Origin: Chryseobacterium sp. IHB B 17019
Lineage (GTDB): Bacteria; Bacteroidota; Bacteroidia; Flavobacteriales; Weeksellaceae
DNA: 64,000 nucleotides
Assembly: GCF_001456155.1 (NCBI RefSeq)
Contig: NZ_CP013293.1
Span: 868,001-932,000, forward strand
Direction of reading: 5' to 3'
Below, piece by piece: positions 20,417 to 59,992 of this stretch. Made by a program: the position numbers and the translations under genes. The notes beneath the pieces were generated by a model. It made no database searches. It was not told where the DNA came from and saw nothing but the letters and a program-made list of their open reading frames with translations. Positions within the stretch are counted from its first letter, which is position 1. Every line of letters begins with the position of its first letter.

Positions 20417-20474
20417 CAAGATTGATTTAATGCAGGGGTATTTTTTTTCATATTAATATTTTGTGATTTGGAGT

Positions 20475-43345: not shown

Positions 43346-43380
43346 TTATTGAATTATTATTCAATAATTACATATATTTG
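43346..43380 (+). promoter_or_regulatory. Promoter and inverted repeat upstream of the Panacea pair
   Basis: TTATTGAAT at 43346-43354 and ATTCAATAA at 43359-43367 form a perfect 9-bp inverted repeat around four bases, and TATATTTG is at 43373-43380. The start codon is only four bases after the box, so the mRNA may have almost no leader. A site for self-repression, as in many toxin-antitoxin systems. Confidence 0.6.
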
Positions 43381-43384
43381 TTTT

Positions 43385-43858
43385 ATGAATACTGCCTTTA
43401 AAACTAAAAATCAATATGATAGCATAGTAGGAGCTAAGCTCTTACTGGCTTTAGCCCATCAAAAGGGTATTGTACTGAACACTACTAAAGTGCAGAAGAT
43501 GCTTTATATTATATATTCATATTTTTTAGCAAAACATGGCTATGAAATATTTACTGAAACTCCTAAAGCTTGGCCTTACGGTCCAGTATTTCCAAGAACA
43601 AGAAAAAATGTAGATTATAGCAAGGTTTATAAAACATCAGACACTGAACTAGAAAATATCATAAAAGAAAAGGATATTGTTGAAAAGTTTAATAGTGTGA
43701 TTGATAAGTATGCACGATTTTCTGCATCTCATTTGTCAAATTGGTCACACATGGAAGCTGGCCCGTGGGATAAAACCACAAAACAACCCCAATTTAAATG
43801 GGGTGACTATATTCCTAGCGAATATATTAAAGATTATTTTTCTAATTTAGAAGTATAA
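43385..43858 (+). CDS. Panacea-domain (DUF4065) antitoxin, PanA-like
   Basis: 157 residues from the ATG at 43385; an alternative TTG start upstream would run through the inverted repeat. The motif LLALAHQKGIVLNTTKVQKMLYI, YIIYSYFLAKHGYEIFTETPKAWPYGPVFP and the LSNWSHMEAGPWDKT end match the Panacea/SocA-like domain. Panacea proteins are known from other bacteria as broad antitoxins that neutralise unrelated toxins coded beside them. Here it is coded beside a two-helix membrane protein with a one-base overlap. It should protect the lysogen. No clear DNA-binding part is seen besides the domain itself. Confidence 0.8.
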   Translation: MNTAFKTKNQYDSIVGAKLLLALAHQKGIVLNTTKVQKMLYIIYSYFLAKHGYEIFTETPKAWPYGPVFPRTRKNVDYSKVYKTSDTELENIIKEKDIVEKFNSVIDKYARFSASHLSNWSHMEAGPWDKTTKQPQFKWGDYIPSEYIKDYFSNLEV

Positions 43859-45007: not shown

Positions 45008-46147
45008 TTAATATTCATCAAGTTTTATTTTCTTCGCTTCTTCAAATCTGATGTTATTAATATAATTTGCATAAATCTCTGTCATTTTTTCCTTTGAGTG
45101 ACCAAATATTGTACTTACTGTTTTTAAATCAATTCCGGCTTTTAATTTATCATTCCCTCCCTTATGTTTAAGAGAGTACAATTTCTTATTTATTTTTAAA
45201 CCCTGAATAACTATTTTCCTCCATAAATCAGTAGGATATTTTCTTTTTATCTGGTAAGGATTAGGACAGTAATAATTTTCTACTAATCCAGGTGTTCTGT
45301 TTGGCGTGTTCGCTCCAAATAGGTAATAATCAGAATTAGAAAAATCAAATTTTAAAAGATGTTCCTTAATAGTTCCAATCAACGGAACAAATCTTGTTTT
45401 ATTGGTTTTAGAGTTTTCTGAACTAATAATAATAACGCCCTGATCAAAAAGAACATCCTTGCATTTTACCTTAAGTAATTCACCGGGTCTTATTCCCATA
45501 TAATAGACGATTGAACAAAATATATAGTAATTTATATGAAGGCCTTTCAACTTAGAAAATACTATTTGCTGTTCTTTATCACTCATAATTTCATATCCGC
45601 CAATATTAACTTCCTTTACTGCCTTAATTTCTTTAGTAGGCGAGGTTCTTATTATTTCCCACTCCACCAGCTCCGAGAATATTGAATTTAAATTACGTAA
45701 TATTTTATTGTAGTTCCTGCCAGACCATGACCTGTCATTCTTGGCTAAATCCAGAATTGTTTTAATGTGTTGACGGTCATATTCAAGAACGCTTAACTTT
45801 TCATATCCTGCTTTCTTATTGTATTCTTTTATTATATTAACGGCAATTGTATATTCCTTGTATGAACCATCACTAAGAGAATTTCTTTTCTTTTCAAGTC
45901 CAAAATCAAGCGCCTCAGAAAAAGAATATCTTTCCGTTTTCTTTGCTTTCGGATCCCAGCCTTTTAGTATATCTCTCTCAATGGACGCCTTAAGTACCTC
46001 AGCTTTGAACATTCTATCTTCAAATGTTTTTTCAGAATTAAGGCCTTTATATATTTTTTTTATAATTTTACCATTTAAGTAGAGATAGACATACCATTTT
46101 TCATTTAAATTTTGTGATGAAAATATTCTAACTTCTATTTTTTTCAT
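45008..46147 (-). CDS. Tyrosine-type integrase
   Basis: 379 residues. Residues 1-65 are an arm-binding-like domain, about 75-180 the SAM-like core-binding domain, and 190-375 the catalytic domain: Arg220 (GIRPGELL), Lys250, the KH pair at 327-328 (YSLKHKG), His350 (FGHS) and nucleophile Tyr359. The LKH instead of LRH box is seen in integrases of this phylum. It lies just inside the candidate attR, as usual, and should insert and excise the prophage with help from an unidentified excisionase (perhaps the 8445 protein). Confidence 0.93.
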   Translation of the reverse strand: MKKIEVRIFSSQNLNEKWYVYLYLNGKIIKKIYKGLNSEKTFEDRMFKAEVLKASIERDILKGWDPKAKKTERYSFSEALDFGLEKKRNSLSDGSYKEYTIAVNIIKEYNKKAGYEKLSVLEYDRQHIKTILDLAKNDRSWSGRNYNKILRNLNSIFSELVEWEIIRTSPTKEIKAVKEVNIGGYEIMSDKEQQIVFSKLKGLHINYYIFCSIVYYMGIRPGELLKVKCKDVLFDQGVIIISSENSKTNKTRFVPLIGTIKEHLLKFDFSNSDYYLFGANTPNRTPGLVENYYCPNPYQIKRKYPTDLWRKIVIQGLKINKKLYSLKHKGGNDKLKAGIDLKTVSTIFGHSKEKMTEIYANYINNIRFEEAKKIKLDEY

Positions 46148-46258: not shown

Positions 46259-46371
46259 CGAGGTAAAAGGAAAAGTATTTTAAGATTAAAGCATTGAAAA
46301 GATCAATTAATTTGATAATTGAGCTCACAATCTTTTAGTTTTTAAATCATTAAATCTTTTATTTATTATTT

Positions 46372-47541
46372 ATGAACACAGAAAATATAAAAATTCAAAT
46401 AAAAACTTTCTTTGGATTAGAACAAATTTTAGCAGAGGAAATCAAAAAATTAGGGGGAAGAGAGGTTGAGGTTAAAAATCGCGCAGTCAATTGTGAGGGC
46501 GATTTAGGTTTTTTGTATAAAATTAACTATTCTTCCAGAACGGCTTTAAAAATTTTAGTTCCGATTCATGAGTTTAAGGCTTTCAATCAACATCAGTTTT
46601 ATGACAGGCTTTTCAAATTCAACTGGGAAGAATTTATGGATGTTGACCAGTCTTTTGCGATTGATTCTACCGTGAATTCTGAAACTTTCAAGCATTCGCA
46701 ATTCGTGACTTTGAAGATGAAAGATGCTATTGTGGATTATTTTCAGGAGAAATTCAAGAGACGTCCAAACGTAGAACCTAAAAGCCCGGATATCAAGTTT
46801 CATCTTCATATCGACAGGGAATTGGTCACCATTTCTTTGGATTCTTCAGGTGATCCTTTATTTAAAAGAGGATACAGAAAAGAGCAGGGTGAAGCGCCGA
46901 TCAACGAAGTTCTGGCAAGCGGAATGCTTCAATTGGCAGGCTGGGACGGAAAAGGGAATTTCCTTGATCCGATGTGTGGTTCCGGAACTCTTTTAATTGA
47001 AGCAGCGATGATCGCTCTGGATCTTCCGGCACAGATTTTCAGAAAAAGATTTGCTTTTCAGAACTGGAAAAATTACGATGCTGATTTATTTTCAAAAATT
47101 AAAGAAGTCAGAATCGGAAGAATAAAGGAATTTACCGGAAAAATAGTTGGTTACGATATCGATGCGAGAATGCTGAACGCCGCAAGAACGAATATTGAAG
47201 CAGCTGAAATGGAAGATGTTATCGAGGTGAAAAAACAGGATTTCTTTGAATCTAAGAAAGAGCTTTTCCCATTGTTAATGGTCCTCAATCCACCTTATGA
47301 TGAGAGAATTTCGATCAACGATGATGATTTTTACAAGAAAATAGGGGATACTTTCAAAACAAGCTACCCGAATACTCTGGCTTGGTTAATCTCTTCTGAT
47401 TTGGAAGCGGTGAAGAAAATCGGATTGCGCCCGTCAAGAAAAATTAAGCTTTTCAATGGTAAGCTGGAGACGAGATTTTTGCAGTATGAGATGTATGAGG
47501 GAACGAAGAAAGTGCATAAACTTGAAGGAAAACAAGACTAA
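46372..47541 (+). CDS. THUMP-domain RNA guanine N2-methyltransferase (RlmL-like N-terminal part)
   Basis: 389 residues. The N-terminal 160 include a THUMP RNA-binding domain (KTFFGLEQILAEEIKKLGG at the start and the HLHIDRELVTISLDSSG strand). The methyltransferase part has the SAM motif NFLDPMCGSGTLLIEAAMIA and the catalytic NPPY (about 310) followed by DERI. This family methylates G2445 in 23S rRNA or a related position; exact site not known here. It lacks the second RlmK-like domain, as is usual outside gammaproteobacteria. Confidence 0.87.
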   Translation: MNTENIKIQIKTFFGLEQILAEEIKKLGGREVEVKNRAVNCEGDLGFLYKINYSSRTALKILVPIHEFKAFNQHQFYDRLFKFNWEEFMDVDQSFAIDSTVNSETFKHSQFVTLKMKDAIVDYFQEKFKRRPNVEPKSPDIKFHLHIDRELVTISLDSSGDPLFKRGYRKEQGEAPINEVLASGMLQLAGWDGKGNFLDPMCGSGTLLIEAAMIALDLPAQIFRKRFAFQNWKNYDADLFSKIKEVRIGRIKEFTGKIVGYDIDARMLNAARTNIEAAEMEDVIEVKKQDFFESKKELFPLLMVLNPPYDERISINDDDFYKKIGDTFKTSYPNTLAWLISSDLEAVKKIGLRPSRKIKLFNGKLETRFLQYEMYEGTKKVHKLEGKQD

Positions 47542-47564
47542 ACTAAGCTTGTTGGAAATAAAAT

Positions 47565-47625
47565 AATCCTTCAACGATTCAATTTGACATTATTTTGTCA
47601 CGCTGGAAACGTTGAAGGATTTTTA
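47565..47625. terminator. Bidirectional terminator
   Basis: AATCCTTCAACG at 47565-47576 pairs perfectly with CGTTGAAGGATT at 47610-47621, loop 33 bases, then TTTTA. It lies between two convergent units (RNA methyltransferase and terpene synthase array) and can serve both. Confidence 0.8.
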
Positions 47626-47639
47626 CATATAAATTTCAG

Positions 47640-48674
47640 CTATTTTTTTACAAAGATACTGTGTGGAATAACGATGTCATCTCCCTCTCTTCCATATTTG
47701 GGAACAATAAATCCTTTGGGCTCATACCGATTGGTTCCGGAGCTATAGTACCAATTTGCGCAGCCGCTTATCTGCAATTTAATGTGATAAATATGATTAT
47801 AGGTATCTTCCTGAAAAGCTCCTAAATCCAGAAAACGGAGAGATTCATGCAGATCATTCAATTCCTGTCCATAGGCATCATGTAATCTCATTGCTTCTAA
47901 ACAGGCTTCCTGATAAGAAAGATTATATTGATTTCTTAAAATAAAGATGATATTAAGGCTTTCACCTTCTATTTCAATTTCTTTTTTCAGAGAAGCAAAG
48001 TCATTCTGAATTACAATAATCAGTGACAATAGTTCTCTACATCGCTGTACAATAGGATGATTGTAAATATGTACAGGCAAAGCAAAATTAGTACATGGAT
48101 CTATAAGATCACCATAAGGCCACATCCCAATTGAATATTTTCGGAAACTAAGATAATGAGCAAGTGTTGGGTAGATTGTAGTTTCAGCCTGTTTAAAAGG
48201 TATTTCCTCCATCATACCATATAGTATGAATTCATAAAAGTTGATGGAAACACGCTCTATCCAAAAACGGGGCATTCCATTTTCTACCCATTCTTTTCTT
48301 GCCTGCGCCATCTGTCGCAGAATGCCAATCTCATCGGGACGCGGATCTTCACCCATCATTACCTCATATACCCTATCTGCTATGGCTTTCAACTCTTTTG
48401 CGGGTGTCATACCAAAATAATCATCAAAAAGGGTAATATAAATCATCAGTCTGGCGCAAGGGCGCATGCGCTCTATACTGTCACATGTTGGATTCATATA
48501 GGTGGCGACCCGCGATAGGAATTGAGATTTACATCTTTTTATTCCTTCTTGAGAAATAAACGTATAATCATTATCATACCAATCCTTTTCTTCATCATCA
48601 AAAGCATTAGCAATAGGACTGTCGATAGTTGGCCAGGGGTAATAACACTTTGGCACTATTAATTCTTCTTTCAT
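47640..48674 (-). CDS. Class I terpene synthase (array member 1, most downstream)
   Basis: 344 residues, all-helical terpene cyclase. The Asp-rich motif region is LFDDYFG (Asp84-85), the NSE motif is NDFASLKKE (Asn224, Ser228, Glu232), the pyrophosphate-sensing Arg is Arg178, exactly 46 residues before Asn224, and the end has Arg316-Tyr317. It should ionise a prenyl diphosphate (C15 or C20) and cyclise it. DD is followed by YFG not xxD/E, so its metal ligand set is shorter. Closest in the array to member 2. Product not predictable. Confidence 0.9.
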   Translation of the reverse strand: MKEELIVPKCYYPWPTIDSPIANAFDDEEKDWYDNDYTFISQEGIKRCKSQFLSRVATYMNPTCDSIERMRPCARLMIYITLFDDYFGMTPAKELKAIADRVYEVMMGEDPRPDEIGILRQMAQARKEWVENGMPRFWIERVSINFYEFILYGMMEEIPFKQAETTIYPTLAHYLSFRKYSIGMWPYGDLIDPCTNFALPVHIYNHPIVQRCRELLSLIIVIQNDFASLKKEIEIEGESLNIIFILRNQYNLSYQEACLEAMRLHDAYGQELNDLHESLRFLDLGAFQEDTYNHIYHIKLQISGCANWYYSSGTNRYEPKGFIVPKYGREGDDIVIPHSIFVKK

Positions 48675-48696
48675 GGTTTTGTTTTTTCTTACTTAT

Positions 48697-49773
48697 TTAT
48701 TTAAGATGTTTATTAACTTCAGTAACCTTATTGTTGTTTTTCAAATTCTTAAGCCAATATTCATGTTCAATATGTTTTATCTCTAAATCAAGAGACTGTT
48801 CATTTGCCGTACCATATTTTGGGATGGCAAAACCTTCTTGAGTATACCGTTTAGTTCCCGATTCATAATAAAAGGCATTGAGGCCATGGATCATTATCTT
48901 TACATGATATATATAGTCTTCTACCATTTTCTGATAAAATCCAAAATCTGGTAAGCAGCTCGTGATAGAATCTATTTCCCTAACCATCTCATCATGTATT
49001 CTGAGCGATTCTACGATGGCTTCTTGCAATGAAGTTTTATACTCATGCATTACAACCAGAATAATATTCAGTGTTTCATTATCAGTTGCCAATTCTTTTC
49101 TTATTGATGCAAAATCATTCTGAATAGCAATGATCATTGATTGAAGTTCTCTTAGCCGGTTCATGACAGGATGCTCGTGAATGTGCACGGGTAGGGCTTG
49201 ACCCATTGCTGCCTCTGTTAAGTTTACAAAAACCTTCTGACCGATAGAGTACATTCGGATCAGTAAATAACGGCCCACCGAGGGGTAGGTATTGCTTAAT
49301 TTAAATGGCGTTTCTTCCATCACACCGTAGGTAAAATATTCTCGGAACTCCCTTGCCATACGTTCTATCCAGAATAACGGCATCCCATTTGCGATCCACT
49401 CTTTGCGGGCAGCTGCCATCTGATGGAAAATGCCAATTTCATTAGGCTGGGGATCCTGCTCCATCATAACCTCATAAGTACGATCCGTGAAGGCTTTCAG
49501 CTCATCCAACGGCATAATGCCTACGTAATCATCCATTATGGTATGATAGTAACCACACCGCAATATGGGACGCATCATTTTAGGATTATTTGTAACGGGC
49601 CACATGTTAAAAACAAAATCATATAACCGCTGCTTTCTATATCTGTTTATTGTTTCTTCATCCAAAAAATTATAATCTTCACTAAGCCATTTTTCCTCTT
49701 CGGGGAACTCTACGAAAGGGCTTAAAACTCTCGGCCATGGATAACTGGGAATAGGGACATATACTGTTTTCAT
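48697..49773 (-). CDS. Class I terpene synthase (array member 2)
   Basis: 358 residues. MDDYVG (Asp81-82), NDFASIRKE (Asn219, Ser223, Glu227), Arg173 at -46 and a C-terminal RY pair (GTKRYTQ) are intact. It is 22 bases upstream of member 1, and both share YPWP starts, MMxExDPxPxEIGI and the HxHP segment; likely a recent duplicate. An extra 16-residue Lys/Asn-rich tail is present. Its Asp motif, like member 1, lacks the fifth acidic residue. Confidence 0.9.
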   Translation of the reverse strand: MKTVYVPIPSYPWPRVLSPFVEFPEEEKWLSEDYNFLDEETINRYRKQRLYDFVFNMWPVTNNPKMMRPILRCGYYHTIMDDYVGIMPLDELKAFTDRTYEVMMEQDPQPNEIGIFHQMAAARKEWIANGMPLFWIERMAREFREYFTYGVMEETPFKLSNTYPSVGRYLLIRMYSIGQKVFVNLTEAAMGQALPVHIHEHPVMNRLRELQSMIIAIQNDFASIRKELATDNETLNIILVVMHEYKTSLQEAIVESLRIHDEMVREIDSITSCLPDFGFYQKMVEDYIYHVKIMIHGLNAFYYESGTKRYTQEGFAIPKYGTANEQSLDLEIKHIEHEYWLKNLKNNNKVTEVNKHLK

Positions 49774-49888
49774 AGTTGTTTTTTATTATTAAATTTTTAT
49801 TCTTTTACAATTTTTCTGCCTTCCAGATCAGTGAGCGGATCAATTAATTCATGCATTTCTATTTTCTACCGATTTTATCAATACAAAG

Positions 49889-50896
49889 TTACGAGTCGCC
49901 TCTTGGCCTCACATATTCCTTCTCAGCATATTGATCATTGCTGTGGTAACGCAGTGTATCTTTGAGATACCAGCTATTTAAGCCCTGTATCATCATTCCC
50001 TGATAAAGCACATATTTGTCAACTGATTCATGCCAATCTCCGAAATCCGGCAGGCTGGCATGCAAAGCAACAAATTCCGCCACATCTGCATCATGAATGC
50101 GAACTACTTCCTGAATTGCCTCATCCAGTGAAATATTTTGCTCATGCTGTATTATAAGCACAAGATTAATTACCTCGCCTTTTCTCATGATTTCTTTTTT
50201 TACGGAATACACATCATTTTGCCAGGACATTATTCTGGCTGTTAATGCCTGAATACGCTGTATAACCGGGTGGGCTGAAATGTGTTTTGGCAAAACAAAA
50301 CCTAGTCCCAGCTCAGCCCAGGGCTCATAAGCATACATAGCTATTGAATATTCACGAAATATCATGAAATAGGCACGTGGAGGAAAAACTCCTGTTGTTT
50401 TATAAGGCGCTTCTGCCCGCATTCCATACACCATATATCGATCCATAAAATAGGTAAATACTTCGAGCCATTCAGGTGAAGTAACGGCCAGATATTCATC
50501 CCTTATTATGGCCATTATTTTGTCATGTGGGTGTGCATTAATATCAGGCATATTACCCTTGAGGATACCAATAATGCGTTTATGTGCCTGATCCAGCTCA
50601 TCAACGGTACAAAGGCCACAGTAATCATCAAAGGTGGTGATCCAGATCATGAAGCGGTTACATGCTCTCGCGTGCTCATAAGTCGGCGCTATGGCAAGCA
50701 TCCTTGCAGTAGCTCCATGCAGCCCCATCTGTTTATAGGTTTCCCGGGTTTCAGGGGATAAGAAGGTAAAATCAGTGTCCAGCCATCCTTCCAGATCCTC
50801 CTTCAGTTGGTCAAAATGAGGATTTACCAAATCCGGCCAGGGATATTTGAAAATGAGTGGATAGGGTTGTTCAAAATATTTAATTTCAGATTCCAT
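49889..50896 (-). CDS. Class I terpene synthase (array member 3)
   Basis: 335 residues. FDDYCG (Asp90-91), NDVYSVKKE (Asn227, Ser231, Glu235), Arg181 at -46, RY at the end (DTLRYHS). YPWPDLVNPH start matches the shared N-terminal pattern. Between members 2 and 3 lies a 115-base gap that contains a 19-codon minus-strand frame (49797-49856) of unknown worth. Confidence 0.9.
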   Translation of the reverse strand: MESEIKYFEQPYPLIFKYPWPDLVNPHFDQLKEDLEGWLDTDFTFLSPETRETYKQMGLHGATARMLAIAPTYEHARACNRFMIWITTFDDYCGLCTVDELDQAHKRIIGILKGNMPDINAHPHDKIMAIIRDEYLAVTSPEWLEVFTYFMDRYMVYGMRAEAPYKTTGVFPPRAYFMIFREYSIAMYAYEPWAELGLGFVLPKHISAHPVIQRIQALTARIMSWQNDVYSVKKEIMRKGEVINLVLIIQHEQNISLDEAIQEVVRIHDADVAEFVALHASLPDFGDWHESVDKYVLYQGMMIQGLNSWYLKDTLRYHSNDQYAEKEYVRPRGDS

Positions 50897-51033
50897 ATTT
50901 CAGTTGTTTTGTTATTATAAATGAAACTTAGAGAGTTTGACATTTGTATTTTTTCTCTTGCTTACACAGACAAAAAAGCATAAGCATATCATACCAATCT
51001 TGGGCATCCTTCTTCATAATATCAGTATATAAA

Positions 51034-51061
51034 ATATCTTATCCGGCCAAGGATAAGATAT
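51034..51061. terminator. Strong hairpin between terpene synthase genes
   Basis: ATATCTTATCC at 51034-51044 and GGATAAGATAT at 51051-51061 form a perfect 11-bp stem with 6-base loop. It sits in the 201-base gap between members 4 and 3 and, on the minus strand, is followed by ATTTTATATA. It may end the upstream transcript or shape expression along the array. Confidence 0.55.
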
Positions 51062-51097
51062 CGTTGTTTATAATTTTTGTGATGGATCAATTATAAT

Positions 51098-52096
51098 CTA
51101 AAGTGATGTATCTTGAGTTTCCCTATCTGGCCATGCAAAGCATTTGGGATCATAACGATTTGTATCTACCAGGTAAAAAGTATTCAGACCTTGTATCAGG
51201 CTGCCCCAGCCTAGGAACAATTGTTTTATCTCTTCCTGATACTTCCCAAAATCAGGAAGGTCTTCCTGTAAAGCAATAAGTTCTGCAAGATCATCGTCAT
51301 GAATTTTCATGGCTTCAGACAAAGCATCTTCTAATGACAAGTTATAGTTTCTTTGTAAGACGATAACGATATTCATAACTTCCGTATCCTTGCTTAGTTC
51401 TTTTTTCAATCCCTGGATATCATTCTGCCAGGCAATAATTCTAGACCATAGGGATCGAACACGCTGTATCACAGGGTGGCGTTCTATCTCTTCTGTTAAA
51501 AAAATACCAAACTCCGCATCAACCAGATAGAAATAAGGAAATATTACAATTGAATATTCCCGGATTACTTTAAACAATGCAAGTGAAGGTACTGTTTGAG
51601 TGGCCTTATAACTAGCCTCTTCCTGAGCGCCGTATCTTGTAACGGTGTAAAATTCTTGTGCCAAGCGCTCCATCCATTCATCAGGCATAAAAGCACCAAA
51701 TTCATCTCTGATTTTAGCGGCCTGAATGAAATATCCGGGATCTTCCGGAGTAAGGCTGTCTCCTCTGAATATTGCTTCGAGTCGCTTACCATATTTAGTA
51801 ATCTCTTCTTCGGTTGCATATTCAAGCTGATCGTCAAATATGGTATGGAAAACAACAAGCCGATGCATAGGTGTTACGCGCTCATAACTTGCATAAGGAT
51901 ACATTCTTGCCGAACACTTGTGCAGGTCCATGCTCTTGTATCGTTCACGTATATTTTCAGATAAATATACATAATCGGTATCAATCCAGTTTCTGTAATC
52001 GATACCCATTTGTTCCACATTAGTATTGATTTTATCTGGCCAAGGGTAATAACCTTGAGGCAGGTAATTCGACGGGTTGTAATCTTCTGGTTTCAT
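51098..52096 (-). CDS. Class I terpene synthase with altered NSE motif (array member 4)
   Basis: 332 residues. FDDQLEY (Asp88-89, Glu92) is a good DDxxE motif and Arg179 sits 46 before Asn225, but the NSE motif reads NDIQGLKKE: Ser229 is replaced by Gly, a metal ligand loss that may change or abolish activity. RY is present (DTNRYDP). It and member 5 share the MKPEDxNPxxYLPQGxYPWPD start, so they are close paralogues. Confidence 0.88.
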   Translation of the reverse strand: MKPEDYNPSNYLPQGYYPWPDKINTNVEQMGIDYRNWIDTDYVYLSENIRERYKSMDLHKCSARMYPYASYERVTPMHRLVVFHTIFDDQLEYATEEEITKYGKRLEAIFRGDSLTPEDPGYFIQAAKIRDEFGAFMPDEWMERLAQEFYTVTRYGAQEEASYKATQTVPSLALFKVIREYSIVIFPYFYLVDAEFGIFLTEEIERHPVIQRVRSLWSRIIAWQNDIQGLKKELSKDTEVMNIVIVLQRNYNLSLEDALSEAMKIHDDDLAELIALQEDLPDFGKYQEEIKQLFLGWGSLIQGLNTFYLVDTNRYDPKCFAWPDRETQDTSL

Positions 52097-52139
52097 TTTT
52101 TTTAAATTAAAGTGATAAATTGATGTTTGATAGGTTGTT

Positions 52140-52316
52140 ATTATGATAGAATAGTTTTAATTTAAAATATTCTTGCACAATGTATTCTTGAACCTGATTC
52201 AGCTTTGCTTTGAGTTGTGCTGCTCCAGGAATCCAGCTGCGGTATAACGGTCTGGTTTTGTAGATATTTAACAACAGCTTCTGCAATAGTCCAAAATCGG
52301 GAAGCGGGCCGGGAGT
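52140..52316 (-). pseudogene. C-terminal fragment of an eighth terpene synthase
   Basis: The minus strand can be read as LPDFGLLQKLLLNIYKTRPL then RSWIPGAAQLKAKLNQ, which resembles the C-terminus of member 6 (SLPDFGIWQDAVVNW ... PGAAELKKKLNQI). A frame change is visible in the middle and no start or catalytic region remains. It fills most of the 265-base gap between members 4 and 5 and records a deleted synthase gene. Confidence 0.75.
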
Positions 52317-52361
52317 TCTATATAAATACTGTCATTTCTTTTTATCCTTATTATTGAACTT

Positions 52362-53363
52362 CTATATTTTCGTATCATTATTAATCTCCGGCCATGCAAA
52401 ACCTTCACCACCAGCAAGGTAGCGCTCTGTGTCTTTTATATAATGAGTATTAAGTCCTTGTAATATTGAGCCAAGACTTGTAACATAGTCATACACCTGT
52501 TGCTGGTAACTGCCAAAATCCGGTAAATTTTCATGAAGTGCTACAAATTCACTAACGTCTTGATCATGAATATGTTTCGCCTCAGTGACAGCTTCTTCTA
52601 AAGATATATTTTGACCTTTTTGTAAAACAAGAATTAAGTTCATTAACTCTGTATCAAGCCCCAGCTCTTTTCGTAAGGAGTAAAAATCGTTCTGCCATGC
52701 CTCGATTCTTGATGTAAGTGCTCGCAGACGTTGTATTACAGGATGCTCTTCGATATATTTTGGCAAAACAAAATTTACTTCAATATCCGCCCAGTATAAA
52801 TATGGATACATATTTACGGAGTACTCTCGCAATATTAGAAAATATTCTAACGAAGGAATGCGCTTAGCCAACTTAAATGGGGTTTCTTCCTGTACACCAT
52901 ATTTATAACAACGAGATAGATTTTCGATAAATCGTTCTAGCCATTCGGATGGCATAAAGGATTTGTATTCATCTCTTATAAGGGCTAAATGCTGGAAAAT
53001 ACCATTCTCATCAGGAAAAGGAGTAGAGCCGTTCAGTATTTCTATTGCCCGATCGCAGTCTCTTTTTTTCTCTTCAATTGTTGCAAATTCCATCTGATCG
53101 TCCATCACAACAAAATTGAGGACAAATCGATTACAGGGTATTGTTTGTTCATAGCTTGCTTTGGGAATCATTCGGGCAGTACATAAATGAAACCCCATTT
53201 TTTTATATTTTCTCCTTGCCTTTTCCGATAGATAGGTATAATCATGATCAATCCAATTGTTCATATCAATCTCCATCTGGGCAATATTTGGATTTATCAA
53301 ATCAGGCCAAGGATAACAACCTTGTGGTAGATAATCTTGTGGATTAAAATCTTCTGGTTTCAT
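52362..53363 (-). CDS. Class I terpene synthase (array member 5)
   Basis: 333 residues. MDDQMEF (Asp88-89, Glu92), NDFYSLRKE (Asn225, Ser229, Glu233), Arg179 at -46 and RY (DTERYLAG). All key residues are intact. Close paralogue of member 4 but with a normal NSE Ser, so comparing the two would show what the Gly variant does. Only 39 bases separate it from member 6. Confidence 0.91.
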   Translation of the reverse strand: MKPEDFNPQDYLPQGCYPWPDLINPNIAQMEIDMNNWIDHDYTYLSEKARRKYKKMGFHLCTARMIPKASYEQTIPCNRFVLNFVVMDDQMEFATIEEKKRDCDRAIEILNGSTPFPDENGIFQHLALIRDEYKSFMPSEWLERFIENLSRCYKYGVQEETPFKLAKRIPSLEYFLILREYSVNMYPYLYWADIEVNFVLPKYIEEHPVIQRLRALTSRIEAWQNDFYSLRKELGLDTELMNLILVLQKGQNISLEEAVTEAKHIHDQDVSEFVALHENLPDFGSYQQQVYDYVTSLGSILQGLNTHYIKDTERYLAGGEGFAWPEINNDTKI

Positions 53364-53402
53364 ATCATCTTATGTTTTAAAATTTGGGAATTTAATGTTA
53401 TT

Positions 53403-54416
53403 TTATATTTGGTTTAATTTCTTCTTCAACTCAGCCGCACCAGGAAATTCCATAGCATTGTAACGGTCCAGCTTTGTTGAAATATTCTTCCAGCCACTCA
53501 GAACCATGCTCATATAGTGTACCCAGTTAACAACAGCGTCCTGCCATATCCCAAAATCGGGTAGAGAAGCCTGGAGTTCCACAAACTCTTTCAGGTCTTC
53601 ATTGTGCAGACGCAGATCTTCAAGACAAGCTTCTTTCAGAGACATCTGCTTTTCATGTTGGATCACCTTTACGATATTGTAATAAATACTGTCCGTAGCC
53701 TCGTCTTTGATTACAGATTGTACCTCATTGAAAAAAGTAACCAGATGGCAGGCCAACGTCTGTAAACGGCGAATCACCGGATGCTCATGTATCTCGGGAG
53801 GCAAGATAATTCCGGTTTCCACTTCTGTGAGTTGTAGGAAGGGGTAGAGGCATATAGAGTTTTCGCGCAAAGCAATGCACTCTTCTACACTGGGATATGT
53901 TTTGTTTTTCTTGTATTTCAACTCGGTTTCCAGCCCTGTAAAATACCTGCTGATCATTTTTGAAAAACGGAAAATTGATTCCTGTGGGATAAACTGTAAT
54001 AATTCCTCTCTCAATGTAGCCAGCATGGCTCCTAAAGGTATTCCCGAATCTGCGGCAGTGATTTCGCCATTGAGTATTGCAACAGATTGAGTATGGACAT
54101 GCCCAATATCTTCGACCTCACTTTCCTCATAAAGATCGTCATTATACAAAGTCCATAACATTAATCTACAGATTGGCTTGAACCGTTCAGGTGGTGCGGT
54201 AGGAAACCATTGGGCTGCAATATGCGCCGTTTTAGTTTTTTTGTACTTTTTGCGAAGATCTGGATTTTGCTCGTAGAGCCATAGATATTCTCCGTCAATC
54301 CATTGATTTTCAGTAATCTCCTGCAATTGTTCAGCATGGGGATTTTTTAGTGTAGGAAAAGGATACTTAAATTGTTTGTAGAGCAGCTCAAGAGTGCTGA
54401 AATTTTCAGTGTTCAT
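53403..54416 (-). CDS. Divergent class I terpene synthase (array member 6)
   Basis: 337 residues, the most divergent member. Asp motif reads NDDLYEES (Asp93-94, Glu97); the NSE motif is NEVQSVIKD (Asn230, Ser234, Asp238) with Glu in place of the second-position Asp and Asp at the end. Arg184 is at -46, and RY is present (KLDRYNA). The first 34 codons and 200 bases of upstream DNA are repeated at 55995-56315. Possible altered metal binding or product. Confidence 0.87.
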   Translation of the reverse strand: MNTENFSTLELLYKQFKYPFPTLKNPHAEQLQEITENQWIDGEYLWLYEQNPDLRKKYKKTKTAHIAAQWFPTAPPERFKPICRLMLWTLYNDDLYEESEVEDIGHVHTQSVAILNGEITAADSGIPLGAMLATLREELLQFIPQESIFRFSKMISRYFTGLETELKYKKNKTYPSVEECIALRENSICLYPFLQLTEVETGIILPPEIHEHPVIRRLQTLACHLVTFFNEVQSVIKDEATDSIYYNIVKVIQHEKQMSLKEACLEDLRLHNEDLKEFVELQASLPDFGIWQDAVVNWVHYMSMVLSGWKNISTKLDRYNAMEFPGAAELKKKLNQI

Positions 54417-54633
54417 AATTTCATGATTTTGGTTTAGTTTTGAATACTAATATAAAAATTTAATTAACCCAATATTAAAATAATTCACATAAAATTGATA
54501 TGTTGTATAACAGATTCTGTTATGTTGCATTAACAGGGGAATTTATACCATGAAAATATTTAGCTATAATTTGAAATAGGAAAGTTTTCGAGAAATTTAA
54601 AACAATTTCTTCCTAATTTTTTCACCAAAATTT
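54313..54633 (-). repeat. 321-bp direct repeat, copy 1
   Basis: Matches 55995-56315 with an offset of 1682 bases and only one difference noticed (54534). It covers the first 34 codons of member 6 and about 217 bases upstream, including its promoter region. Copy 2 belongs to a truncated synthase remnant. Confidence 0.95.
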
Positions 54634-54894
54634 TGATCAGAAAACAGGGAGATGCAAATTTCAGATACTATTGGTCAGAAAATTTTATTTTTGTTGAAAA
54701 TTGAGTGAATTAAAAACAAATCTATGTCTTGGAATATTTTTGATGCCGTATGAGTTGTCCTTGATGCTTTGGATTTTTTTGGGAAATTTGTCGTCTCCGA
54801 ATTGAGAAACTGAAAAATCGGAAAATAGTAAAAAATCAAAATATATTGTAGAAAAGATTGGTTTTGAATTGTACAAGGTACTGGCGTTATATCG
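54417..54894. other. 478-base gap between array members 6 and 7
   Basis: No gene is supported here. It holds the upstream part of the 321-bp repeat with the ATAACAG/CTGTTAT palindrome, and AT-rich DNA beyond, with no clear terminator. Confidence 0.5.
54507..54523. promoter_or_regulatory. 17-bp palindrome upstream of member 6
   Basis: ATAACAG-ATT-CTGTTAT, perfect 7-bp arms, about 90 bases before the member 6 start. Its copy at 56189-56205 precedes the truncated remnant. A candidate operator for a regulator of the array. Confidence 0.55.
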
Positions 54895-55944
54895 TCAATC
54901 ATATCTACCTGCCCCATTTTCCGGCTCCTTGTCAGACGAAAATTCAGGATCGGGCCAAACATCCGATGTATAGCGAAACGCATCTCTCTCATAATATAAT
55001 TGCAACCCCTGAATCTCCGCCATGAGATAAACCACATACGTTATAACCTGCTGCTGATATGCTCCAAAGTCTGACATAGCAGCAAACAACGCATGGAATT
55101 CCCTTATGTCTGTATCGCTTATGCGTATTGCTTCTGCATAGGCTTCTTCCAACGACATGTTGTATTCGTTTTGCAACACTAATACGATATTCATCATTTC
55201 CGAATCCCTGCCTATTTCCTTGGGTAGCGAATAGAAATCATTTTGCCATGCCATAATTCGGCATGTTAGCCTTTGAAATTGCTTTATAACTGGATGTTTT
55301 GCAAGAAAATCGGGCAATGGGAAATCAAGTATTACTTCCTGCATAAGCATATAAGGATACTCAGCAAGGGAATATTCGCGGATAAGAAAAAATTCAGCCA
55401 GTGGAGGGCAGCGTTGAGTGGCTTTATATGGAGCTTCTCCGCCCATACCATAGATAAAATACTCATTAAATGCTTCTATTACTCGCTCGATCCATGTATC
55501 CGGCATTAATACAGCCATTTCTTTCCTGGATAATGATACTTGCCTCAATATTTCATTATCACCTGGCTCCGGCTCATCACCTAGCCACATCCGTTCAAAC
55601 CGCTGCCGGAACAACTCCAGTTCAGCTTGTGATGCCAGTTCATAATAATCATCTTGCACCAGCATCCATAACGTTACCCTATTACAGGCCGCAGCACGTT
55701 GGTAATCGCCTGGATAAGGTAACATTCTTGCTGTTATAAAGCCGCTATTCATCAACTTATATTTCTGTCGGGTTGATTCAGATAAAAAAGTGTAGGATGC
55801 AATCATTTCATCTGTGTCTATTTTTAGTTGTTCAGCATGAGGGTTTAAAAGCTTATCCGAATGAAATTCGTATCCACTTAAAAAAGGGTATTCGGGACGT
55901 GGCAGGTTTTGATACATTGCATAGGGTTCTTGTTTCTTTGTCAT
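54895..55944 (-). CDS. Class I terpene synthase (array member 7, most upstream)
   Basis: 349 residues with a longer, polar start (MTKKQEPYAMYQNLPRPEYPF). QDDYYE (Asp98-99, Glu102), NDFYSLPKE (Asn235, Ser239, Glu243; Pro in place of Arg/Lys), Arg189 at -46 and RY (DAFRYTS). It lies between the two copies of the 321-bp repeat, so recombination between these could remove it. All catalytic residues are present. Confidence 0.9.
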   Translation of the reverse strand: MTKKQEPYAMYQNLPRPEYPFLSGYEFHSDKLLNPHAEQLKIDTDEMIASYTFLSESTRQKYKLMNSGFITARMLPYPGDYQRAAACNRVTLWMLVQDDYYELASQAELELFRQRFERMWLGDEPEPGDNEILRQVSLSRKEMAVLMPDTWIERVIEAFNEYFIYGMGGEAPYKATQRCPPLAEFFLIREYSLAEYPYMLMQEVILDFPLPDFLAKHPVIKQFQRLTCRIMAWQNDFYSLPKEIGRDSEMMNIVLVLQNEYNMSLEEAYAEAIRISDTDIREFHALFAAMSDFGAYQQQVITYVVYLMAEIQGLQLYYERDAFRYTSDVWPDPEFSSDKEPENGAGRYD

Positions 55945-55969
55945 ATTATTGAGTTTTAAAGTGTGATAT

Positions 55970-56098
55970 TTATAGCTGGTTCAACCTTGCCTTCGTAATC
56001 TCCTGCAATTGTTCAGCATGGGGATTTTTTAGTGTAGGAAAAGGATACTTAAATTGTTTGTAGAGCAGCTCAAGAGTGCTGAAATTTTCAGTGTTCAT
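55970..56098 (-). pseudogene. Internally deleted terpene synthase remnant (42 codons)
   Basis: The frame starts exactly like member 6 (MNTENFSTLELLYKQFKYPF) and runs to residue 35, then jumps to KARLNQL and stop, which resembles the KKKLNQI end of the synthases. So the 5' end is fused to a C-terminal tail with the middle deleted. It includes the copy of the promoter region from the 321-bp repeat. A micro-protein could still be made, but it has no catalytic part. Confidence 0.85.
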
Positions 56099-56315
56099 AA
56101 TTTCATGATTTTGGTTTAGTTTTGAATACTAATATAAAAATTTAATTAACCCAATATTAAAATAATTCACATAAAATTGATATGTTGTATAACAGATTCT
56201 GTTATGTTGCATTAATAGGGGAATTTATACCATGAAAATATTTAGCTATAATTTGAAATAGGAAAGTTTTCGAGAAATTTAAAACAATTTCTTCCTAATT
56301 TTTTCACCAAAATTT
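55995..56315 (-). repeat. 321-bp direct repeat, copy 2
   Basis: Near-identical to 54313-54633; holds the 5' end of the remnant and its upstream palindrome (56189-56205). Confidence 0.95.
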
Positions 56316-56499
56316 GCTTAGAGTTGAGCTTTAAGATGAATAACGTGATAATAATCAGTCGAATAGAGAAATAAAAATGGATGTTGTTCTTCAGTTTTTG
56401 TAAGTCTATATTTATTGAAGTTGAGAGTTTTAATAGGTGGAAATAAAATTTCAGGATTTTTATTAATCTGAAATTTTTACTTTTGTCAAAACTCAAATT

Positions 56500-56904
56500 A
56501 TGAAATTGGATTTTTTGGAAGTTTTGGGAGTTGTAGGAGATATGCTCAATTTATTGGCCAGTAATTCATATTCATCGGATCTTTCTGATGACAATAAACC
56601 TGTAAAAAAGAAAAGGACTAAATATTTTACTATAAAAGTGAGTATGGGATTTATTTTAATCTCCTCAGTTTTATTGTTTTTTGTTTTTAAAGATCCTTTA
56701 CCCGCTGAAAATTATGTCCAAACAATTGTTGTATGCTCATTGATTGGTTTGGCAATTTCACTTATATTCTTTTTTCTCATGTATATTTTGGAAAAATATT
56801 ATTTTAAAAGTGTTTTTCAATGGCTGTTTTTCAGCTGTTCTGTGATTTTGTTTTTTGTTTCAGTGGTTTTGTGTGTTTATTTTGAATCGGGGATATTTAT
56901 TTAA
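56500..56904 (+). CDS. Small three-helix membrane protein
   Basis: 134 residues: a polar N-terminal 45, then helices at about 48-65, 75-97 and 105-130. Its TACTTTTG-like box lies just upstream (about 56474-56481). No family recognised. Divergent from the terpene synthase array end. Function unknown. Confidence 0.55.
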   Translation: MKLDFLEVLGVVGDMLNLLASNSYSSDLSDDNKPVKKKRTKYFTIKVSMGFILISSVLLFFVFKDPLPAENYVQTIVVCSLIGLAISLIFFFLMYILEKYYFKSVFQWLFFSCSVILFFVSVVLCVYFESGIFI

Positions 56905-56947
56905 ATTACAAATATTATGAAATAAAAAAATAGAACCTTTTCAGATT

Positions 56948-57172
56948 CTATTTTTGTTCTAGCTGTGCAATTTTTTCTTTTAATTGCTGAATTTCTTTTT
57001 TCAGAAGTTCAATGTAGTCTTGTTGGTTTTCAAGCAAAAATTCTGGGACATTGCAATACACATTATTACTTCCTACGTAACTACCTGTAATGTTTTCGAA
57101 GTTTTGACTAATGGAATTTTCTTTATCGGTTTGTTTTACTATCTCACCAGAGATAGTCTCTTCTGTATTCAT
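56948..57172 (-). CDS. Small coiled-coil protein, possible regulator remnant
   Basis: 74 residues from the ATG giving MNTEETISGEIVKQTDK. The ENITGSYVGSNNVY segment and the final EIQQLKEKIAQLEQK coiled coil resemble the C-terminal part of XRE-type regulators in this group, but no helix-turn-helix is present. It may be a truncated regulator gene. An in-frame ATG 66 bases upstream gives a non-matching addition. Confidence 0.45.
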   Translation of the reverse strand: MNTEETISGEIVKQTDKENSISQNFENITGSYVGSNNVYCNVPEFLLENQQDYIELLKKEIQQLKEKIAQLEQK

Positions 57173-57247
57173 TTGATTAAACACAAACCGTACTCTTTTA
57201 CTAACCCTTTGATGGGAATGTGGTAAATAAATAAACATTAATTAAAT

Positions 57248-58039
57248 TTGAGGATGTGTAAATACTTTTTAATATTATCAATACTATCTTTTACTTGTTT
57301 GTTTTCTCAACAAAAAGCTGAGAAGTCTCTTTCAGAACTTGAGGTTCAATATGAATATTCTTTTGTTAGGGATACGATAGATGTGGATCAGAGTCATAGG
57401 TTCAAAGAACTTATGCTTTTGGATTTCAATTCAAATACTTCCTTGTTTTATAGTCAGCAATATGTAGCCGCTAGAGAGATTTTTAAAAAAGCTGCTGCTG
57501 CGGCATAAACCTCTAGTAATGTTGAGATTAGGGCTGCTGATTTACCAAAATATAAAGTTGGCTATTCTATATATAGAGAAGGCTCGAAAATTTATTTTAC
57601 AAGTCATATAAATCGAGATTTTTATACTTTTGAAAATACTTATTTAAGTTGGGATACCAATTACAAAGATGTAAAAACGATTCTTGGATATAAGTGTAAT
57701 AAAGCTACAACAAAATTCGGTAATAGAATTTACACAGCTTGGTACACAAAAGATATTCCGGTATCGGAAGGACCTTATAGATTTAAAGGACTCACAGGTT
57801 TAATTTTAGAAATTAGTGATGCAAATAAATATCATTCCTTTATTGCAATAGGGATTGAAAAAAAAGAAGTTGAAATTGCACCTCTACAAAAAGGCATTCC
57901 TGTAACAAGGGAAATGTATATTAAAAAGAGAGAGGAATTTAAAAATAACCCATATCCACAAAGTAAAACTCTCACAAAAGAGAGAAGAGATCAGATGATT
58001 GAAGCTTTTAAAAAAGATAATAATTCAATCGAAAACTAA
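57248..58039 (+). pseudogene. GLPGLI family protein gene interrupted by in-frame stop
   Basis: A signal peptide (LILSILSFTCLFSQ) begins a 263-codon frame. A TAA at 57506-57508 (codon 87) interrupts it but the same frame stays open to 58039 without shift. The later part has the family core: YKCNKATTKF, AWYTKDIPVSEGPYRFKGL and GLILEISD (GLTGLI in place of GLPGLI). These are secreted or periplasmic proteins of unknown function in Bacteroidota. One base change would restore it. Confidence 0.8.
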
Positions 58040-58984: not shown

Positions 58985-59992
58985 TTATTCTACATCGAAT
59001 TTCATTCTCAAGATTTCTTCACTTAATTTCCATAAACGCTCTGCATTTTCCTTGTCGATAGAATAGGGCTGAACTCCTCGTATTGTTGATGGGTCATCAA
59101 ATCTGTGCTCAATTTGCCCATTATCGATTTCTGCAATATCGCAATTTTCGCAATACACTCCACCGATATTTTCAAGAAGTGGAGTTGTAGCGCACCAGAC
59201 CGTTGTGGCAGCACCTTGCGGGATAGTTTTCAGTTGGGCCTCCACTTCGGGTTTTATTTTTCCATTTTCGTCGTGGGTTCCTATTTGAATGAACAAATCA
59301 ATCGGTTCTTCTCTTCCCAAATCAGTTCCAAAAACAGAGCCTGGATGCAAAGAATAAGCTCTCACATTGAACTTTCTCGCTTTTTCATCCAATGCAACAG
59401 CAAACAAATTACTCGCAGTTTTCGATTGCCCATAGCCGATCAAAGTCTGGTATTCCCGATTCTCAAAATTTGGGTCTTCAAAATCAAAAGGCGACATCTG
59501 ATGTCCATAAGAAGAAACGTTGATTACCCTTGCTCCGTCAGCTTTTTTTAAGGCTTCCCATAATTTTGCAGTAAGGTGAAATTGTCCCAAATAATTGGTG
59601 GCCAACTGTGATTCGATGCCCCTGCTGTCTCTTCTCAACGGAACCCACATGATTCCTGCATTGTTAATTAATAAATCTAATTTTCTTCCTGTACCGATAA
59701 ATTTTTCAGCAAAAGAATCAATAGAATTGGGATCAATTAAATCCATTTTTTCAATTTCAACATTTTCAATTCCTGAAAGGTTTTTTTTCGCTTTTTCAAG
59801 ATCTCTGGCCGGAACAATTACGGTAGCTCCTGCCGAAGCCAAGGTTTTTGTGGTTTCCAAACCAATTCCTGCGGATCCACCGGTAACAATTGCGATTTTC
59901 CCGGAAAGATCAATTCCTTTGATAACATCCTGCGCTGTAGATTGTGCCGTAAAACCTGAATAAATAGGTTGTTGTAAATTATTCTGTCTCAT
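58985..59992 (-). CDS. Short-chain dehydrogenase/reductase
   Basis: 335 residues. The cofactor loop TGGSAGIG (about 38-45), NNAGIM (111-116) and the catalytic YGQSK (Tyr/Lys) with Ser in NVSSYG match SDRs of the retinol-dehydrogenase-like type. The substrate is unknown. The N-terminus has about 30 residues before the first strand. Its promoter (TACCTTTG on minus, 60022-60029) has two AraC-type half-sites upstream, so the AraC protein probably activates it. Confidence 0.88.
   Translation of the reverse strand: MRQNNLQQPIYSGFTAQSTAQDVIKGIDLSGKIAIVTGGSAGIGLETTKTLASAGATVIVPARDLEKAKKNLSGIENVEIEKMDLIDPNSIDSFAEKFIGTGRKLDLLINNAGIMWVPLRRDSRGIESQLATNYLGQFHLTAKLWEALKKADGARVINVSSYGHQMSPFDFEDPNFENREYQTLIGYGQSKTASNLFAVALDEKARKFNVRAYSLHPGSVFGTDLGREEPIDLFIQIGTHDENGKIKPEVEAQLKTIPQGAATTVWCATTPLLENIGGVYCENCDIAEIDNGQIEHRFDDPSTIRGVQPYSIDKENAERLWKLSEEILRMKFDVE

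What the first reader, a model, noticed from the sequence alone, without database searches (positions are those of the whole stretch)
47640..56315. Seven tandem class I terpene synthases plus two remnants on one strand
Seven full-length genes (332-358 residues) each keep an Asp-rich motif, an NSE-type motif, an Arg exactly 46 residues before it and a C-terminal Arg-Tyr pair. Two further decayed fragments (52140-52316; 55970-56098) raise the count of genes that once existed to at least nine, unless both came from the same event. Terpene synthases usually appear singly or with prenyl transferase and P450 genes; here none of those lies inside, so the array may make several hydrocarbons from a shared FPP or GGPP pool. 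Diterpene synthases are known from Chryseobacterium, so some products may be known and others new.
Basis: partly seen in the sequence, partly recalled or inferred. Interest (0 to 1): 0.92.

Follow-up and report, generated by a model that had tools for sequence, protein, structure and literature searches.

The report
Mix-and-match terpene-making gene array
Seven neighbouring bacterial genes for terpene-making enzymes appear to have been stitched together from small mobile pairs, each pair headed by the same kind of first gene, a pattern that recurs across soil bacteria and shows how one microbe can collect many scent-like chemicals.

Summary
Confirmed: window 47640-55944 (minus strand) holds seven intact class I terpene synthases (T1-T7) and two remnants. 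They are not local duplicates: they are 26-51% identical to each other, but T1-T6 have 85-93% identical counterparts elsewhere in Chryseobacterium; T7 has none above 43%.

T6 belongs to one conserved clade ("A") and matches published chryseojoostene synthase at all seven reported residues. In 173 genus genomes I counted 73 A genes; 69 have another terpene synthase directly downstream and one, this window's T6, has one upstream. Both remnants are broken A genes, sitting before T7 and T4. In 17 sampled genomes, 11 of 20 partner genes with no synthase before them carry A remnants upstream; of 37 A-type genes, none. Between genera, DNA similarity covers the A-partner pair and little else.

So the array was most likely built from A-partner modules joined end to end, with inner A genes decaying. 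No synthase lies at this site in five relatives. Products from GGPP are predicted, not shown. Why a constant diterpene synthase leads each module is unknown and testable. New variant of a known kind; the papers searched list no report of it.

The parts
54895..55944 (-). T7, class I terpene synthase, 349 aa, orphan
   Evidence: PF19086 109 bits; best other match in 173 genus genomes 43%; only the own genome matches at E<=1e-60 among 395 class genomes drawn evenly; AlphaFold2 model pLDDT 85, Foldseek top hit T-muurolol synthase 9hr0
53403..54416 (-). T6, leader ('A') gene, probable chryseojoostene synthase, 337 aa
   Evidence: PF19086 109 bits; I66 M86 L90 I188 C189 L190 D238 as published for CjCS; member of a 35-row clade in a 153-row tree
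52362..53363 (-). T5, partner terpene synthase (clade F), 333 aa
   Evidence: PF19086 100 bits; 92% to G043_C1_3632097; A-F pair also in C. defluvii L151 (86%)
52188..52304 (-). Remnant 1: C-terminal end of an A-clade gene, directly upstream of T4
   Evidence: tblastn A residues 285-338, 39% identity, E 1e-5; DNA 52267 to 51069, i.e. remnant end + spacer + T4, colinear at 92.6% over 1202 columns with the A-E pair of C. elymi L097
51098..52096 (-). T4, partner terpene synthase (clade E), 332 aa, Gly in NSE motif
   Evidence: PF19086 105 bits; 93% to G058_C3_357440, dS 0.25
49889..50896 (-). T3, partner terpene synthase (clade D), 335 aa
   Evidence: PF19086 114 bits; 85% to G079_C13_36153
48697..49773 (-). 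T2, partner terpene synthase (clade C), 358 aa
   Evidence: PF19086 114 bits; 90% to G158_C3_43289, which sits in an A-C-B array
47640..48674 (-). T1, partner terpene synthase (clade B), 344 aa, last gene
   Evidence: PF19086 101 bits; 86% to G158_C3_42159
55970..56098 (-). Remnant 2: 42-codon ORF, first ~35 codons of an A gene joined to 7 codons resembling an A C-terminus; 25 bp upstream of T7
55992..56315 (-). Direct repeat copy 1: upstream region plus start of an A gene, in front of T7
   Evidence: 99.4% identical to copy 2
54309..54633 (-). Direct repeat copy 2: upstream region plus start of T6
46372..47541 (+). RlmL-type methyltransferase gene, left neighbour (flank of the insertion)
   Evidence: UPF0020/THUMP/RlmL_1st; no terpene synthase next to it in five relatives
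56500..56904 (+). 134-aa gene without Pfam match, right neighbour
   Evidence: its counterpart lies beside RlmL in 4 of 5 relatives (in G027 one small ORF lies between); no match in the G043 stretch

Best explanation
The locus is an acquired, modular array of seven class I (type I) terpene synthases. The building block is a two-gene unit: a constant first gene A (here T6, a chryseojoostene-synthase-type diterpene synthase) followed on the same strand by a variable partner synthase. Units were joined end to end: [A remnant 2 - T7], [A = T6 - T5], [A remnant 1 - T4], then T3 and T2-T1, whose relatives elsewhere mostly sit in A-led arrays or behind A remnants. Inner or superfluous A copies were cut down to remnants, leaving a long run of partners. 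Shown by sequence: the clade, the position rule, the remnants, the colinearity of remnant 1 + T4 with a complete A-E unit, the different distances of the genes to their counterparts, the empty site in relatives. Inferred: that the 5' region of A supplies the promoter (its copy before T7 would then drive T7, the T6 copy the other six), that joining went through recombination in A sequence, and that each enzyme ionises GGPP (some perhaps FPP) with Mg2+ and releases a cyclic hydrocarbon or alcohol. T6 most likely makes chryseojoostenes; the other six products are unknown.
For: Position rule: 73 A genes (64% or more to T6) in 52 of 173 genus genomes; 69 have a terpene synthase within 1.6 kb downstream on the same strand, 1 has one upstream, the window's own T6, which also has one downstream (related loci not corrected for). 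Outside the genus: 10 of 13 evaluable A loci (14 in all) in Pedobacter, Flavobacterium, Chitinophaga, Taibaiella and Parapedobacter follow it. Remnants: A remnants upstream of 11 of 20 partner genes with no synthase before them, 0 of 37 upstream of A-type genes (Fisher p=9e-7, some rows are counterparts of one another). Remnant 1 + T4 match the C. elymi A-E unit at 92.6% through the A end, spacer and T4. Unit of transfer: similarity between Pedobacter steynii and C. rhizosphaerae covers A and X' and about 240 bp before them (80.6% DNA), likewise for Flavobacterium cerinum and Chitinophaga; 80% is the level of RlmL between species inside the genus (80-86% among listed matches). Different distances: dS to the nearest sampled counterpart T4 0.24, T2 0.38, T5 0.64, T6 1.25, T3 1.61, T1 1.66. 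A copies group by partner type (25 changes against 36.2 in shuffles, 0 of 200 as low), not by genome (24 against 24.5, 91 of 200 as low). No synthase at the site in five relatives.
Against: [quoted passage not shown] joostei is an exception or a neighbouring synthase was not counted; I could not see that genome. Large arrays in G101, G063, G058 and G079 share gene order, so part of the pattern is plain inheritance. T3 and T2 in the window have no detectable A remnant before them, and the T1 gap is too short to hold one. Of 20 partners with no synthase before them, 9 show no remnant within 1 kb. The exact insertion borders next to RlmL are not resolved. Outside the genus, Parapedobacter L140 has a synthase 1.3 kb upstream of A, Chitinophaga varians has its partner on the other strand, and Dyadobacter and Chitinophaga sp. 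Ak27 are solo. Promoter function of the 5' region is untested, and the upstream regions of A are poorly conserved.
Confidence: 0.78

Rival explanations
1. Ordinary local tandem duplication: one ancestral synthase was copied repeatedly in place and the copies diverged.
For: All seven are one Pfam family on one strand; a 325-bp, 99.4% direct repeat shows that at least one recent duplication or recombination happened here.
Against: The seven are 26-51% identical to each other while T1-T6 have 85-93% counterparts in other genomes, with very different dS values; in the 153-row tree T1-T6 fall into separate clades, each with genes of other genomes.
Confidence: 0.07
2. An old large array, inherited vertically and pruned differently in each lineage; the A-first rule is only the fossil order of one ancestral operon.
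For: Arrays in G101, G063, G058 and G079 share order, with A first and a B-clade gene as the last intact one.
Against: Five relatives closest by RlmL lack any synthase at the site; A-partner pairs are found in other genera with similarity almost confined to the pair; A copies in one genome are no closer to each other than chance; A remnants sit inside arrays in front of partners, which needs more than one A per array.
Confidence: 0.12
3. A is kept first only because its 5' region is the promoter and start signal of the unit; the A protein itself is incidental. (This concerns why A leads and can hold together with the modular reading.)
For: Where no synthase lies upstream, 8 of 11 remnants keep part of A's N-terminal 30 residues, while 6 of 6 inner remnants keep only the C-terminal part; these rows include counterparts of one another, so fewer events (about 5 of 8 against 0 of 4).
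Against: A is under strong purifying selection (dN/dS 0.036-0.048; T1 pairs are as low, 0.042-0.046; dS is high in several of these pairs), the catalytic positions examined are the same in 35 of 35 A proteins, and 69 of 73 A genes have a partner, so the protein itself seems to be selected.
Confidence: 0.3
4. The genes are terpene-synthase-like proteins without cyclase activity.
For: Missing third acidic residue in T1-T3, Gly in the T4 NSE motif.
Against: Purifying selection on T1-T6 (dN/dS 0.04-0.16); the T6 type is an active enzyme in C. joostei; T7 model matches solved class I synthases; Gly in the NSE position is tolerated in some plant enzymes (recalled, not from a call).
Confidence: 0.04

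Closest known systems
Chryseojoostene synthase CjCS of Chryseobacterium joostei (PMC12535395)
   Same: All seven residues named in the paper (I66, M86, L90, I188, C189, L190, D238) are identical and at the same numbers in T6; 32 of 35 A-clade proteins share all seven at aligned positions, and no other clade has a member with more than two. Its 26-27% identity to the polytrichastrene and wanjudiene synthases fits T6 against the clade with their residues (26-30%).
   Different: The CjCS sequence itself was not available here; that paper says its gene is not part of a gene cluster, whereas A genes here lead pairs or arrays.
Polytrichastrene synthase CpPS and wanjudiene synthase CwWS (PMC8518897, PMC7383580)
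   Same: Same genus and enzyme class; a single gene elsewhere in this genome (G000:C1:3271259) has all six CpPS residues checked at zero offset.
   Different: Belong to another clade (S1) that stood as single genes in the 11 sampled Chryseobacterium cases, not to the array.
Tandem terpene synthase arrays in other Chryseobacterium (G101, G058, G063, G079)
   Same: Up to seven intact synthases in a row, A first; inner A remnants in three of the four (G101, G058, G079).
   Different: Other partner combinations (X, W, B, D); no flank family shared with the window.
Plant metabolic gene clusters with duplicated terpene synthases (recalled; PMC8418127 seen in a search listing only)
   Same: Several terpene synthases side by side.
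   Different: There mostly by local duplication and with P450s (recalled); here apparently joined from separate two-gene units without tailoring genes.

Membership tests
Class I (type I) bacterial terpene synthases | Terpene_syn_C_2 domain above the curated cut-off | tested here: met
   7 of 7, 100-114 bits against 23.7
Class I (type I) bacterial terpene synthases | Asp-rich motif DDxx(D/E) | tested here: inconclusive
   Complete in T4-T7, only DDxxG in T1-T3; the G is fixed in all 20 B, 2 C and 5 D clade members sampled
Class I (type I) bacterial terpene synthases | NSE triad, pyrophosphate-sensor Arg, RY pair | tested here: met
   Sensor and RY 7 of 7; NSE exact in 5 of 7, Gly in T4, Asp in T6
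Class I (type I) bacterial terpene synthases | Alpha-helical terpenoid synthase fold | tested here: met
   T7 only: pLDDT 85, Foldseek E 2e-12 to 9hr0, TM 0.79/0.89
Class I (type I) bacterial terpene synthases | Turnover of a prenyl diphosphate | not testable with these tools
   Needs protein
Chryseojoostene synthase (T6 only) | Cavity and NSE residues of CjCS | tested here: met
   7 of 7 positions
Chryseojoostene synthase (T6 only) | Overall sequence identity to WP_076356785 | not tested
Chryseojoostene synthase (T6 only) | GGPP to chryseojoostenes | not testable with these tools
   Needs protein and GC-MS
Classical terpene biosynthetic gene cluster (synthase + tailoring enzymes) | P450, prenyltransferase or other tailoring genes beside the synthases | tested here: not met
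   None among the ORFs of 46300-57600; no P450 match in the genome, both polyprenyl synthases elsewhere. A short-chain dehydrogenase gene lies at 58985-59992 but is also present at the array-free site in 3 of 5 relatives

The most novel reading that the evidence does not exclude
A is a constant functional partner, not just a neighbour: the A protein (chryseojoostene-synthase type) works together with whichever partner synthase follows it, for example as the constant half of a heteromeric complex or as the first enzyme of an obligatory product pair. The two-gene unit would then be a constant-plus-variable system that spreads among Bacteroidota and is stacked into arrays. Not excluded by: A rarely occurring without a partner in the genus (4 of 73, all four from the 64-67% side branch) while partners do occur without A (20 partner genes with no synthase before them in the sampled genomes, 11 with A remnants), and partners with replaced catalytic residues but low dN/dS sitting directly behind A in four genomes.
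Probability: 0.13. Interest if true: 0.85.

Novelty: new variant of a known kind. Interest (0 to 1): 0.62.

Why it matters
Bacterial terpene synthases are usually mined one gene at a time. If arrays in Bacteroidota are built from units with a fixed first gene, then (1) the A gene is a search handle that leads straight to dozens of uncharacterised partner synthases in at least six genera (A genes were seen in seven); (2) the enzymes of one array should be assayed together with A, which single-gene work would miss; (3) array growth by joining units, with A remnants as scars, gives a readable record of how a bacterium gains new chemistry; and (4) the link to chryseojoostene synthase, for which C. 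joostei released no diterpene in laboratory culture (PMC12535395, Conclusion section read), suggests a testable reason: the pair, not the single enzyme, may be the working unit. T7 has no close relative in what was searched and is the best candidate for a new product.

Tried and rejected
Local tandem duplication as origin: rejected by tree and dS. Conserved operator in front of A: a 17-base palindrome 105 bp upstream of T6 was found in 1 of 48 A upstream regions (some cut short by contig ends), so not a conserved element. A possible N-terminal remnant in the T4-T3 gap was set aside: tblastn finds no synthase remnant there, and the place is a hairpin (51034-51061) listed on the plus strand among terminator-like sites, whose total (7) is at the shuffled mean of 7.5. 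Sigma-70-like promoters: 45 found against 41.5 expected, uninformative; flavobacterial promoters differ (recalled). Exact insertion borders from joined flanks: intergenic DNA too diverged. Clustering of A copies by genome: no signal. Plasmid records for T7: 8 records, all under 60% identity. C. joostei is not among the 62 named loci returned, which rest on two short peptide patterns. Literature: eight searches; in the rows listed (at most 20 per search, of up to 5,529 papers) none was on tandem or A-led synthase arrays in Bacteroidota; the library is open-access PMC only.

Rows dropped and limits: one search left out two 43-44% A-like genes, one A gene with two stops (G062:C27:10655) and shorter fragments; partners there are those matching T7 at E<=1e-40, so other synthase types would be missed. 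The 16 genomes were chosen for high copy number. One search skipped gaps under 50 bp and left out clades S1, S2, S4 and S5; A has more query sequences than any other clade, which favours A as best match a little. The partner-label test used 66 of 71 A rows (5 without a partner left out) and does not correct for shared descent.
Full report
OBSERVATION. Seven ORFs of 332-358 aa lie on the minus strand between 47640 and 55944. In order of transcription they are T7, T6, T5, T4, T3, T2, T1. All match PF19086 well above cut-off; NCBIfam models for characterised sesquiterpene synthases match only far below their cut-offs, so no product can be read off them. The sensor Arg and RY pair are present in 7 of 7; T1-T3 lack the third acidic residue of DDxx(D/E), T4 has Gly and T6 has Asp in the NSE motif. 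These departures are fixed across the sampled members of their clades, so they are old features, not damage. A model of the orphan T7 has pLDDT 85 and matches solved class I synthases.

THE GENOME. The same genome has PF19086 matches at five further places: four intact genes and one split into two ORFs. It has two polyprenyl synthases, neither near the array, and no P450 match. In the genus 76 of 173 genomes have a match, with up to 19 matches in one.

NOT LOCAL COPIES. Pairwise identity among the seven is 26-51%. T1-T6 each have a counterpart in other genomes at 85-93%. In a tree of 153 full-length synthases from 17 genomes they fall in separate clades (quick method, several long branches, T7 among them). 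dS to the nearest sampled counterpart runs from 0.24 (T4) to 1.66 (T1) (values above about 1 are near saturation). T7 has no match above 43% in 173 genus genomes and only the own genome matches at E<=1e-60 among 395 class genomes drawn evenly.

THE LEADER RULE. T6 belongs to a clade, A, that stands first in the arrays sampled. Over the whole genus I counted 73 A genes in 52 genomes: 69 have another synthase within 1.6 kb downstream on the same strand; one has a synthase upstream, and that one is T6 of this window, behind T7. The four without a partner are all from the 64-67% branch. In the sampled genomes 33 of 35 A genes have a partner, 27 of these 33 gaps are 110 bp or less, median 57. Named loci add other genera: of 14 A loci outside Chryseobacterium one ends at a contig end; of the other 13, ten have a synthase within 1.6 kb downstream, one has it on the other strand and two are solo; one of the ten (Parapedobacter L140) also has a synthase 1.3 kb upstream. 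At E<=1e-60 the A query matched 53 of 320 genomes of the family, all in 1 of 33 genera, yet A genes appear at 52-90% in more distant genera, at 81-90% in Flavobacterium, Pedobacter, Taibaiella and Chitinophaga, which points to horizontal transfer (inference).

WHAT A IS. The chryseojoostene synthase paper (PMC12535395; parts 1-3 of 5 of the text and the Conclusion read) names residues I66, M86, L90, I188, C189, L190 and D238. T6 has all seven at the same numbers; 32 of 35 A proteins do at the aligned positions; no other clade has a member with more than two. The reported identity of CjCS to CwWS and CpPS, 27% and 26%, fits T6 against the clade that carries the CpPS/CwWS residues, 26-30%. I take T6 as its orthologue; the CjCS sequence itself was not compared.

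REMNANTS AS SCARS. I searched 106 upstream gaps (50 bp or longer, up to 1 kb where no synthase lies before) with all array-type synthases. Of 20 partner genes with no synthase before them, 11 have a remnant, in every case an A gene; of 37 A-type genes, none. Of 49 gaps between a synthase and a partner, 12 hold remnants; A is the best match in five and a second match in a sixth. Shuffled gaps gave none. In the window, remnant 2 (42 codons, A start plus seven A-like end codons) precedes T7, and remnant 1 (A end) precedes T4. Remnant 1, the spacer and T4 are colinear with the A-E pair of C. elymi at 92.6% over 1202 columns, whereas T6 itself matches the A genes of such A-E pairs at only about 75-79% DNA. 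So T4 most likely arrived as an A-E unit and lost its A. T5 follows T6 as in the A-F pair of C. defluvii. T2-T1 repeat the order of the A-C-B array of Chryseobacterium sp. Bi04, though T2 (dS 0.38) and T1 (1.66) differ in distance to it, so they need not have come together. T3 counterparts sit behind A remnants in G058, G063, G079 and G101. No remnant was found before T3 or T2.

THE UNIT THAT MOVES. Comparing A units across genera, DNA similarity starts near A (up to about 400 bp before it for Chitinophaga against C. populi) and ends at or within about 40 bp of the partner's stop; the remaining hits are weak, most of them between paralogous synthases. On a tree of 71 A genes, partner type changes 25 times against 36.2 on average with shuffled labels (0 of 200 as low), while genome of origin is not clustered (24 against 24.5). 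Shared descent inside the genus also contributes to the first number.

THE SITE. In the five relatives closest by RlmL, no synthase lies in the 20-kb stretches around RlmL; the counterpart of gene 56500 stands beside it in four (with one small ORF between in G027), and many of the further genes up to 63997 follow. On its other side RlmL borders a prophage here, absent in the five, where the counterpart of gene 1857-2633 is adjacent. So two insertions seem to flank RlmL.

MECHANISM. Shown: array, clades, position rule, remnants, colinearity, empty site. Inferred: array growth by recombination between A sequences. A single crossover of a circular A-T7 molecule into a resident A unit would give the direct repeat seen at 54309 and 55992, but so would a tandem duplication. 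Also inferred: transcription from the 5' region of A (two transcripts here), and cyclisation of GGPP. Heads tend to keep A's N-terminus and inner remnants only its C-terminus (8 of 11 against 0 of 6, but only about 5 of 8 against 0 of 4 independent cases), which fits loss of inner promoters. Against a mere promoter role for A stand its low dN/dS (0.036-0.048, shared with T1 at 0.042-0.046) and intact motif positions in 35 of 35.

NOVELTY. The enzymes are of a known class and T6 probably of known function. The A-led unit and the assembly of arrays from it did not appear in the rows listed by eight searches of the open-access library. Papers: PMC7383580 parts 1-2, PMC8518897 parts 1-2, PMC12535395 parts 1-3 and Conclusion; PMC7192455, PMC12723471 and PMC7440613 passages only; others as listings.

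Noticed in passing
L014, L015, L016, L017, L019 (second gene of each array; e.g. G101:C1:2259100-2260080): Five partner proteins of clade X in four genomes have replaced catalytic residues (EDYYE; NSE ending in Lys; Arg of the RY pair lost; sensor Arg lost in three) but dN/dS of 0.10-0.17 among them: possible maintained pseudoenzymes right behind A.
   Followed up: partly
L014, L015, L016, L019 (181 aa) and L017 (198 aa), 3' ends of arrays: A half-length synthase ORF of conserved length (35-43% to residues 7-170 of other partner synthases) ends several arrays.
   Followed up: no
G000:C1:3271259-3272272 (L011): Single synthase with all six polytrichastrene synthase residues checked (I66 A87 G90 A91 A192 M308): probable CpPS-type enzyme in the same genome.
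   Followed up: partly
G000:C1:3866641-3867566 (L013): A further synthase split into two ORFs, about 40% to clade S3: probably a pseudogene.
   Followed up: no
window 2634-46371: Prophage with terminase, portal, head, tape measure, holin, endolysin and integrase (45008-46147), carrying a tRNA-Leu (20346-20417); absent next to RlmL in five relatives.
   Followed up: partly
9 array loci in 6 genomes: L022, L023, L024, L025, L032, L048, L064, L065, L086: A 126-aa protein family without Pfam match (first 60 residues tested) lies beside A or the array at several different sites, some of which share other flank genes.
   Followed up: partly
L026, L067, L082: One gene neighbourhood holds a lone A gene of the 67% branch in G158 and G084 but an A-X'-U array one gene further along in G093.
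   Followed up: no
window 43349-43858: SocA/Panacea-domain (antitoxin-like) gene near the end of the prophage, followed by a small gene with a hydrophobic stretch (by eye).
   Followed up: no
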